This document shows, piece after piece, positions 21,384 to 23,034 of a stretch of DNA of 64,000 nt. The translations under genes were made by a program, and so were the position numbers. Location of the stretch: the NCBI RefSeq assembly GCF_018278905.1, contig NZ_CP046600.1, positions 5,456,001-5,520,000 of the forward strand, given 5' to 3'. The notes beneath the pieces are model-generated. The model worked only from the letters and a program-made list of their open reading frames with translations. It made no database searches and was not told the origin of the DNA. This DNA comes from Mycobacterium spongiae (GTDB lineage Bacteria > Actinomycetota > Actinomycetes > Mycobacteriales > Mycobacteriaceae). Every line of letters begins with the position of its first letter. The first letter of the stretch is position 1.

Positions 21384-21538
21384 CTCCCCCGCTGGGTTCG
21401 TCACAGCCCGTTGAGGGCGCATAATTGGCGCGGCCAACCGTAGCCGTGTCGAGTTGCACTGCGGCCGATCCACGCGCATGCTGCTTCTAATCGAGTTGCC
21501 AGTGTGGTTATTTGGATGGAGGCGTCGCGGAGGGCGAG

Positions 21539-22072
21539 ATGGCAGACGGCTCAGGTCAGCCAATAGGGGTTGCCCCCTTCCACTCTCGTGGCGCGCTCAA
21601 AGGGTTTGTGATCTCCGGGCGCTGGCCTGATTCGACGAAGGAGTGGGCCCAGCTGCTGATGATTGCTGTCCGGGTAGCGTCCCTGCCCGGATTGCTCTCC
21701 ACCACGACGGTGTTCGGTGCCCGCGAGGAGCTGCCCGACGATCCCGAGCCCGGAACCGTGGGATTGGTCCTGGCCGAAGGCACCGTCTTTGGCGAATCAG
21801 CAATCCAGCCAGGGTATTTCGCCGATCATCAGCCCCCCGCATTGCTGATGCTGCATCCCCCCTCGGAAACAATGCCGTCGTTGCCCGAATGCACGGGCGC
21901 GGCATCGGGTTGTGTGCTTCTGCCGGGATTGCCGTACCTGGGTTTGGAGCACCGGGCGGCCTGGGTGGAGGCTGAATCCGACGGCACCATCACCTCGATG
22001 GTCAGCCGTGTCGGCGTCGACCCGATCAGCCATCCCGATACGGCAGTTTTGGCGATGCTGCTTGCCGCATAA
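21539..22072 (+). CDS. Conserved hypothetical protein, Rv3847-like
   Basis: 177 residues starting at the ATG behind GGAGGGCGAG; this is the length I recall for Rv3847. A nine-residue longer frame exists but lacks a better ribosome site. The protein is neutral to acidic and has no membrane helix, signal or metal motif. It has internal hydrophobic strands (AQLLMIAVRVASLPGLLSTT, GTVGLVLAEGTVFG) and looks like a small mixed alpha/beta cytosolic domain. The function is unknown. Confidence 0.85.
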   Translation: MADGSGQPIGVAPFHSRGALKGFVISGRWPDSTKEWAQLLMIAVRVASLPGLLSTTTVFGAREELPDDPEPGTVGLVLAEGTVFGESAIQPGYFADHQPPALLMLHPPSETMPSLPECTGAASGCVLLPGLPYLGLEHRAAWVEAESDGTITSMVSRVGVDPISHPDTAVLAMLLAA

Positions 22073-22160: not shown

Positions 22161-22320
22161 CGCTAACCTTGGGGCCGTTAGCGAAGGGGAGTAGCCCCGA
22201 ATCGTCGAGTCGACATACTGGCAACGAGCCCGGCCGGCGAACCGTCTAATCAGGCGGTGGGCGAGACCTTCGACCGATGTTCGATGACCGAATGGTCGTC
22301 GACCGCGTGTCGAAAGGTCG
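22161..22320 (+). promoter_or_regulatory. yybP-ykoY (Mn2+) riboswitch before the UPF0016 transporter gene
   Basis: The conserved family elements are all present in order: GGGGAGTAGC, then GTCGACATACTGG, and then GGGCGAGACC. P1 forms between CGAAGG (22182-22187) and CCTTCG (22267-22272), closing a 91-nt aptamer. A separate hairpin, CGCTAAC/GTTAGCG, precedes it. The P1 3' strand GACCTTCG is nearly the reverse complement of CGAAAGGTC, which contains the gene's ribosome site a few bases before the ATG. Metal-stabilised P1 would free the ribosome site, giving a translational ON switch with manganese. The family is a known Mn2+ sensor and typically controls UPF0016, MntP and P-type ATPase exporters. 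Confidence 0.9.
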
Positions 22321-22326
22321 CGCACT

Positions 22327-23034
22327 ATGCTCACTGCCACACTGGTTAGTCTCGGCGTGGTTTTCCTCGCCGAGCTCGGCGACAGGTCCCAGCTCATCGC
22401 GATGGCATACGCGCTGCGCTATCGCTGGTGGATAGTGCTGACGGGAGTTGCCATCGCCGCTTGCACGGCGCATGGGGTGTCGGTAGCGATCGGACACTTC
22501 CTCGGCGCCACGGTGCCCACTCGTCCAATGGCACTTGCGTCCGGGTTTGCGTTCCTGATCTTTGCCGTGTGGACCTGGCGGGAAAGCGCAACCGGCGAAG
22601 ACAGCGAAGACCAGGGTATCTCAACCCCGACCGCATCTCGGTTCGCGTTACTCACCGTGGTTTCCCCGTTCTTGCTGGCCGAGCTCGGCGATAAGACGAC
22701 AGTGGCGACAGTGAGTCTGGCCAGTGATCACAACTGGTTGGGTGTGTGGATTGGCACCACCCTGGGCATGATTCTCGCCGACGGCGCAGCGATCGGCGTC
22801 GGAATGCTGCTGCACCAACGGCTTCCGAAACGTCTGCTGCAGATCGTGGCCAGCCTGCTGTTTCTGCTGTTCGGCTTGTGGATGCTGCTCGACGGCGCGC
22901 TGGGCTGGCGCCCCGTTGCCGTCGGCGTTGTCGCCACCGTGGTGCTGACCGCGGTCGCGGCGGGGACGGCGCAAACTCTTCGGCGGCGAGGTGCGACGCC
23001 GGTAATCGCCGAGAGGTCCAAGCAGGAAGCCTGA
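22327..23034 (+). CDS. UPF0016 / GDT1-family Mn2+ (or Ca2+) transporter, Rv3848-like
   Basis: 235 residues with about six membrane helices. The two signature motifs of the family are present: AELGDRSQLIAMA near residue 16 and AELGDKTTVATVSL near residue 118. Each sits in one of two homologous three-helix halves. Members such as MneA/TMEM165 export manganese. A yybP-ykoY riboswitch directly upstream strongly supports manganese as the substrate. From memory the M. tuberculosis protein is annotated longer. The charged C-terminal tail ends in Arg/Lys-rich sequence. Confidence 0.93.
   Translation: MLTATLVSLGVVFLAELGDRSQLIAMAYALRYRWWIVLTGVAIAACTAHGVSVAIGHFLGATVPTRPMALASGFAFLIFAVWTWRESATGEDSEDQGISTPTASRFALLTVVSPFLLAELGDKTTVATVSLASDHNWLGVWIGTTLGMILADGAAIGVGMLLHQRLPKRLLQIVASLLFLLFGLWMLLDGALGWRPVAVGVVATVVLTAVAAGTAQTLRRRGATPVIAERSKQEA

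What the first reader, a model, noticed from the sequence alone, without database searches (positions are those of the whole stretch)
22161..22327. Manganese riboswitch with a visible ribosome-site sequestering helix
The aptamer signatures GGGGAGTAGC, GACATACTGG and GGGCGAGACC fit yybP-ykoY. P1's 3' strand GACCTTCG can pair either with CGAAGG at the aptamer start or with CGAAAGGTC carrying the ribosome site. The competing pairings give a simple translational ON switch for a UPF0016 exporter. The family's Mn2+ sensing is established; the specific switch is inferred from the sequence.
Basis: partly seen in the sequence, partly recalled or inferred. Interest (0 to 1): 0.72.

Follow-up and report, generated by a model that had tools for sequence, protein, structure and literature searches.

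The report
Manganese riboswitch shared by mycobacteria
The RNA just in front of a metal-exporter gene in this mycobacterium looks like a known kind of manganese sensor that hides or frees the ribosome start site; it is a well-conserved but easily missed example of a known switch, not a new kind.

Summary
Window 22182-22272 folds as a yybP-ykoY (Mn2+) aptamer: L1 GGAGUA/GAGA, L3 ACAUACU, helices P1, P1.2, P3, P4, no P2. It ends 54 nt before a GDT1/UPF0016 gene. Rfam's gathering score misses it (8.1 of 45 bits), but also misses both E. coli Mn switches: mntP scores 41.6, alx gives no match. A model built only from 63 mycobacterial aptamers finds both of those. It matches 154 of 198 Mycobacterium genomes and 39 of 296 across the phylum. 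At 19 places examined, the following gene was GDT1 (9), P-type ATPase (5), MntP, TerC/Alx or Na/Ca exchanger (1 each), or no intact exporter (2). Covariation supports the helices (26 of 28 pairs change on both sides; 0 of 500 shuffles). P1's 3' strand can instead pair with GUCGAAAGGUC, which holds the ribosome site; GTCG[AG][AG]AGG is present in 71 of 71 aptamer-bearing relatives' leaders, and the alternative strand covaries in more distant ones. Best reading: Mn2+ stabilises P1, frees the ribosome site and turns exporter translation on. Mn2+ binding and direction are inferred. New member of a known kind; the interest is a genus-wide Mn switch that the Rfam threshold hides.

The parts
22164..22169 (+). 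likely -10 promoter hexamer TAACCT
   Evidence: TANNNT ending about 17-18 nt before GGAGTAG in 70 of 71 relatives; start of transcription inferred near 22176-22178
22182..22187 (+). P1 5' strand CGAAGG
   Evidence: fold; invariant in 63 of 63 rows of A1; covaries in A3
22188..22193 (+). L1 5' side GGAGTA (metal-site loop of the family, recalled)
   Evidence: invariant in A1; opposite GAGA 22263-22266
22194..22197 (+). P1.2 5' strand GCCC, pairs with GGGC 22259-22262
22202..22240 (+). P3 stem: TCGTCG/CGGCGA, GTCG/CGGC and GGC/GCC with L3 ACATACT 22213-22219
   Evidence: L1-L3 offset is 25 nt in each of the 72 rows printed (window and 71 loci)
22241..22258 (+). P4 hairpin ACCGTCT/AGGCGGT
   Evidence: compensatory changes in A1 and A3
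22263..22272 (+). L1 3' side GAGA and P1 3' strand CCTTCG
22265..22274 (+). anti-ribosome-site strand GACCTTCGAC (overlaps P1 3' strand)
   Evidence: free fold
22281..22302 (+). intervening hairpin TCGATGACC/GGTCGTCGA (replaced by a short loop in L037, L040, L044)
   Evidence: sequence
22309..22319 (+). GTCGAAAGGTC: ribosome site (AAAGG 22313-22317) plus its sequestering complement
   Evidence: 71 of 71 aptamer-bearing relatives carry GTCG[AG][AG]AGG within 30 nt of the start
22327..23034 (+). regulated gene: 235-aa GDT1/UPF0016 protein with two ELGD[RK][ST] motifs
   Evidence: Pfam GDT1 136.2 bits, cut-off 27; motifs read from the translation

Best explanation
The leader is a yybP-ykoY type Mn2+ riboswitch with a translational ON platform. 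When Mn2+ is low, the 3' strand of P1 (GACCUUCGAC) pairs with GUCGAAAGGUC and buries the ribosome site, so little exporter is made. When Mn2+ is high, the metal bridges L1 and L3, P1 (CGAAGG/CCUUCG) is held, the ribosome site stays free and the GDT1/UPF0016 exporter is translated. Shown here by comparison: aptamer, mutually exclusive pairings, downstream genes. Inferred: Mn2+ as ligand, ON direction, and that the choice is made while the RNA is being transcribed.
For: Aptamer: a model of 63 mycobacterial rows has only two hits (E up to 10) in 22.2 kb of E. coli, the alx and mntP leaders (28.5 and 27.3 bits). 43 aptamers: 98.0% of cells paired, 26 of 28 pairs with changes on both sides, 0 of 500 shuffles reach this. 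Genes at 19 places examined: GDT1 9, P-type ATPase 5, MntP 1, TerC/Alx 1, Na_Ca_ex 1, no intact exporter frame 2. These are Mn exporter or yybP-ykoY-linked classes (PMC9334652, PMC13274385, PMC9936198 passages). Platform: the ribosome site pairs with the P1 3' strand with probability over 0.5 in 69 of 71 free ensembles; forcing P1 lowers the median pairing of the site from 0.82 to 0.48. 71 of 71 aptamer-bearing relatives keep GTCG[AG][AG]AGG; GTCGAAAGG occurs once in 883,786 other bases, both strands.
Against: No binding or expression data. Rfam score 8.1 bits against a cut-off of 45. In the nearest-neighbour model the P1 state is 9.6 kcal/mol (window) and 13 kcal/mol (median of 71) less stable than the free ensemble, so a purely equilibrium switch is unlikely and kinetic trapping must be assumed; in 23 of 71 leaders the ribosome site stays at least half paired even with P1 forced. 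15 of 43 and 27 of 64 leaders do not pass the 5% shuffle level. 4 of 75 mycobacterial loci have the gene without the aptamer. In mycobacteria P1 does not vary and only P4 shows double changes, so support for the rest comes from other lineages and from an alignment fitted to the model, whose rows are related.
Confidence: 0.83

Rival explanations
1. Same Mn2+ aptamer, but the main output is transcription: with the ribosome site buried, untranslated mRNA is cut off by Rho, so mRNA level rather than translation is what changes.
For: The M. tuberculosis pe20 Mbox combines a translational platform with Rho-dependent termination (PMC12810186, abstract and passages). One low-GC relative (L126) has a terminator-like hairpin followed by UUUU that uses the same P1 3' strand.
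Against: The window leader has no U run after the switch helix (sequence), and the ribosome site itself is the conserved partner in 71 of 71 relatives. Not exclusive of the best explanation.
Confidence: 0.1
2. The RNA senses something other than Mn2+ in the cell (another divalent metal, or pH) although the fold is the same.
For: Family members differ in response: alkaline pH also matters for the E. coli alx and mntP switches (PMC9603457 abstract and passages), and the S. pneumoniae one binds Ca2+ (PMC9495176 section 14). Seven of 71 aptamer-bearing relatives have ACACAC instead of ACATAC in L3.
Against: Downstream genes at 17 of 19 places examined are of families tied to Mn homeostasis (calls listed in the best explanation); L1 is invariant in 63 of 63 rows.
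Confidence: 0.05
3. Conserved leader without switching function, e.g. a protein-binding site or plain mRNA stabiliser.
For: Very high sequence conservation within mycobacteria, 81% mean column identity.
Against: Double changes in all six helices and matching changes in the alternative strand; at L137 and L138, where no exporter frame of 140 aa or more was listed, L1 or L3 is altered.
Confidence: 0.02

Closest known systems
E. coli alx and mntP Mn2+ riboswitches (yybP-ykoY, RF00080)
   Same: L1 GGGGAGUA...GAGACC, L3 with CAU/ACAUAC, P1-P3-P4 layout; both found by the mycobacterial model
   Different: mntP carries extra bases that fit a P2 hairpin, absent here; alx aligns there with a single inserted base; different platform sequence and downstream proteins
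yybP-ykoY switches before UPF0016/MneA genes (e.g. Vibrio)
   Same: same gene family under the same aptamer class; a review reports 328 of 333 screened strains with a UPF0016 gene under this riboswitch, citing Dambach 2015 among others (PMC7380456 passage)
   Different: here the P1 3' strand pairs directly with the ribosome site; whether the 333 strains include mycobacteria could not be read (Dambach 2015 not held)
M. tuberculosis pe20 Mbox (Mg2+)
   Same: mycobacterial metal riboswitch in which a ribosome site can be masked by one strand that another strand takes away (PMC12810186 passages)
   Different: other aptamer class and metal; acts on a small upstream frame of the pe20 operon

Membership tests
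yybP-ykoY / Mn2+ riboswitch (RF00080) | Rfam gathering score (45 bits; a curated threshold, not a biological feature) | tested here: not met
   8.1 bits local match; 0 of 151 family genomes reach it. Controls: E. coli mntP 41.6 bits and alx, no match at E up to 1, also fail; the tool's own 14 control genomes give 2 over the cut-off, not named one by one. So the threshold does not define membership
yybP-ykoY / Mn2+ riboswitch (RF00080) | L1 loop GGAGUA opposite GAGA, between P1 and P1.2 | tested here: met
yybP-ykoY / Mn2+ riboswitch (RF00080) | L3 loop ACAUACU inside P3 | tested here: met
   (the local RF00080 match covers this loop)
yybP-ykoY / Mn2+ riboswitch (RF00080) | P1, P1.2, P3 and P4 supported by covariation | tested here: met
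   26 of 28 pairs with changes on both sides, 0 of 500 shuffles
yybP-ykoY / Mn2+ riboswitch (RF00080) | P2 hairpin (four-helix form) | tested here: not met
   4-nt joiner CGAA in place of P2. Not treated as defining: alx aligns to the P2-less model with one inserted base, and a three-way junction is described for mgtA of S. pneumoniae (PMC9495176 section 14; which helices form it is not said there)
yybP-ykoY / Mn2+ riboswitch (RF00080) | 5' leader of a Mn-homeostasis gene | tested here: met
   GDT1/UPF0016 gene; other copies before MntP, TerC/Alx, P-type ATPase, Na_Ca_ex
yybP-ykoY / Mn2+ riboswitch (RF00080) | P1 competes with a regulatory helix | tested here: met
yybP-ykoY / Mn2+ riboswitch (RF00080) | Mn2+ binding and Mn2+-dependent expression | not testable with these tools
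   needs in-line or SHAPE probing and reporters

The most novel reading that the evidence does not exclude
Mycobacteria hold a Mn2+ riboswitch regulon that surveys relying on the Rfam cut-off miss: GDT1/UPF0016 in most species, and in some species also TerC/Alx, a Na/Ca-type exchanger and a roughly 1,500-residue P-type ATPase of unknown substrate, which would make that giant ATPase a Mn2+ exporter candidate. In the GDT1 and giant-ATPase leaders the 3' strand of P1 is itself the anti-ribosome-site strand, a very short coupling of metal binding to translation.
Probability: 0.6. Interest if true: 0.6.

Novelty: new member of a known kind. Interest (0 to 1): 0.45.

Why it matters
A survey of pathogens names 14 bacteria with a Mn2+ riboswitch and no Mycobacterium among them (PMC9495176 section 14, read whole). 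Here a model tuned to mycobacteria has a match in 154 of 198 genomes of the genus, before any gene. If it works, export of Mn2+ in this genus is controlled by RNA, and the other genes behind the same aptamer become candidates for Mn2+ handling. It also shows that the present RF00080 cut-off passes over both E. coli members tested and all 151 genomes of the family searched.

Tried and rejected
Second RF00080 candidate of the own genome (G000:C1:4635192, 10.5 bits): the part of the sequence read shows no L1 or L3 motif, rejected as chance. Idea that the absence of P2 is a new architecture: dropped because alx aligns to the P2-less model and a three-way junction is described elsewhere. Idea that CGCTAAC..GTTAGCG (22161-22183), which the full fold pairs, belongs to the switch: dropped, it overlaps the likely -10 box and is not kept in many rows. 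MntP near the own genome: PF02659 has 2 weak matches in 31 relatives, 0 over the cut-off, none in the own genome; the MntP copy of the aptamer (L083) is from another genus of the family. First 487 residues of the giant ATPase gave no Pfam hit; the whole 1532-aa frame did. Five ORF lists (L096, L117, L120, L126, L129) covered the wrong side of minus-strand hits; repeated on the right side. Dambach 2015, Price 2015 and Martin 2019 are not held, so whether they list mycobacteria could not be checked; the 2013 regulon survey PMC3766115 covers nine Mycobacteriaceae genomes and finds yybP-ykoY in over 75% of its groups, but the passages seen do not say whether Mycobacteriaceae is one. Paper searches for a mycobacterial Mn riboswitch; none of the listings or passages seen describes one.

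Full report
What is there. The window lies in a 5.58-Mb genome; the named loci closest by protein are from Mycobacterium species. Between a 186-aa frame (21512-22072) and a GDT1/UPF0016 gene (22327-23034, Pfam 136.2 bits) sits a leader of about 150 nt. The order SOD - 186-aa protein - GDT1 - small HTH protein recalls Rv3846-Rv3849 of M. tuberculosis; these names are recalled, no call gave them. The protein has two ELGD[RK][ST] motifs (sequence), the motif of the family (PMC7380456 abstract).

The aptamer. Folded alone, 22176-22275 gives P1 (CGAAGG/CCUUCG), an internal loop GGAGUA/GAGA (L1), P1.2 (GCCC/GGGC), a joiner CGAA, P3 with the loop ACAUACU (L3) and P4 (z -1.99, 6 of 200 shuffles fold as well). 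Each of the three signatures occurs once on the + strand of the window. Of 80 loci fetched with the protein (102 had matched, the best 80 were kept), 71 carry GGAGTAG...GAGACC upstream of the gene; the nine without are four mycobacteria (L025, L034, L043, L049) and five Williamsia/Gordonia (L076-L080). The offset from GGAGTAG to ACA[TC]ACTGG is 25 nt in all 72 rows printed (window and 71 loci).

Rfam. At the gathering score nothing is found in the window, and 0 of 151 genomes of the family reach it (stricter filters); the best local match to RF00080 is 8.1 bits, over L3. That would look like a refutation. But mntP of E. coli K-12 scores 41.6 of 45, and alx is not reported at the gathering score nor at E up to 1 in its 371-base leader stretch. 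Both are Mn-regulated members of the family (PMC9603457 passages). The tool's own controls give 2 of 14 named genomes over the cut-off, without saying which. The converse test is the informative one: model R1, built from 63 mycobacterial rows, has exactly two hits at E up to 10 in 22.2 kb of E. coli, the alx and mntP leaders (28.5 and 27.3 bits, E 1.3e-5 and 2.8e-5; E-values of R1 are rough).

Spread. R1 finds one place in the own genome, this one (110.3 bits; 150 of 8647 first-look candidates scored), and has matches at E up to 0.01 in 154 of 198 Mycobacterium genomes (the GDT1 protein is found at E up to 1e-20 in 145 of 198), 122 of 201 genomes of the GTDB family and 39 of 296 of the phylum. 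These are matches before any gene. On 43 aptamers from 43 chosen sources, 98.0% of cells are standard pairs, 26 of 28 pairs change on both sides, and no shuffle of 500 reaches any of the five measures. The rows were aligned to R1, which leans to its structure, and many are related; the slid controls fall to 29-48% paired. Five weak rows (E 0.26-0.88) were dropped before the count by the limit used. Within mycobacteria alone only P4 shows double changes.

Genes behind the aptamer. I looked at 19 places outside the window, not drawn at random. GDT1: L084, L096, L114, L116, L117, L118, L120, L124, L129 (9). P-type ATPase: L126 and L134, the 1532-aa frame of L144/L145, and L135 and L141, whose first residues resemble it (L135: 88% over 500 residues; L141 by eye) (5). 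MntP: L083; TerC/Alx: L143 (NCBIfam R_switched_Alx); Na_Ca_ex: L136. No exporter frame of 140 aa or more listed: L137, L138. UPF0016, MntP, TerC and P-type ATPases are Mn exporter classes named in PMC9334652 and PMC13274385 (passages); a yrbG gene is under this riboswitch in V. vulnificus (same passage), and PMC9936198 lists YRBG as a Ca2+:cation exchanger type of Mn exporter (passage).

The switch. Folded whole, 22161-22335 prefers GACCUUCGAC (22265-22274) paired with GUCGAAAGGUC (22309-22319), which contains the ribosome site AAAGG (z -3.59, 0 of 200 shuffles). For 71 leaders (window and 70 relatives; L022 left out), the site pairs with the P1 3' strand with probability above 0.5 in 69 (not L060, L075); forcing P1 lowers the median pairing of the site from 0.82 to 0.48, and below 0.5 in 48. 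The forced state costs 13 kcal/mol in the median (9.6 in the window); tertiary and metal contacts are not counted, but the gap suggests that the choice is made during transcription, when the aptamer is complete and the ribosome site not yet made. That is inference.

Is the alternative strand more than chance? All 71 aptamer-bearing relatives have GTCG[AG][AG]AGG within 30 nt of the start, in 42 of them 9 nt before it, while GTCGAAAGG occurs once in 883,786 other bases (both strands) of the 80 loci. GTCG is not part of a ribosome site, so its constancy points to the pairing. In three leaders (L037, L040, L044) the intervening hairpin is gone and the two strands make one short hairpin. The strand changes together with P1: CUCCGACCC/GGGUCGGAG, CCUCCAGCGC/ACGCUGGAGG, CCUUCGGCC/GGCCGGAGG, GACCUUUGCC/GGUAAAGGUC. 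In the more distant leaders that I read (L084, L108, L116-L118, L121, L123) the strand mostly lies further upstream of the start, so the direct coupling to the ribosome site is typical of the GDT1 leaders and of the giant-ATPase leader (L135, GGAGG just before ATG).

Natural losses. L043, L049 and L140 keep the gene and a ribosome site but have the -10-like TANNNT almost next to it: as if the aptamer had been cut out between promoter and ribosome site. In L139 (3.27-Mb genome) a mostly kept aptamer (64.4 bits) precedes DNA that recalls GDT1, yet the genome gives no protein match at E 1e-20 (G552, one search list of genomes without match). In L137 and L138 an altered L1 or L3 precedes no exporter frame of 140 aa or more. 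These fit a switch that is kept for the sake of its gene, though four cases are few.

Verdict. A member of the yybP-ykoY Mn2+ family by sequence, covariation and gene context; Mn2+ binding and ON direction are not tested. New as a mycobacterial member as far as the searched papers tell, but the class, its link to UPF0016 genes and translational control are known, and the founding papers could not be read.

Noticed in passing
L145 314-4912 (also L135, L141, L144): A 1532-aa P-type ATPase of unassigned substrate sits behind a diverged copy of the same aptamer; in L135 the P1 3' strand CCUCC faces a GGAGG ribosome site. Candidate Mn2+ exporter.
   Followed up: partly
L043, L049, L140, L034, L025: GDT1 gene kept but aptamer absent; promoter-like TANNNT lies next to the ribosome site in L043, L049 and L140, as if the switch had been deleted.
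   Followed up: partly
L076-L078, L080: Williamsia and Gordonia orthologues lack the aptamer; a TAACCT or TACGGT a few bases before ATG suggests leaderless mRNA.
   Followed up: no
L139 1691-1781 (minus): A 3.27-Mb genome keeps most of the aptamer in front of GDT1-like DNA that gives no full protein match.
   Followed up: no
L126 1440-1600 (minus): A low-GC actinobacterial copy before a P-type ATPase is followed by a terminator-like hairpin plus UUUU that uses the same P1 3' strand: perhaps a transcriptional version.
   Followed up: partly
Rfam RF00080: The model and its 45-bit gathering score miss both E. coli members tested (mntP 41.6 bits, alx no match at E up to 1), so surveys that rely on it may undercount this riboswitch.
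   Followed up: partly
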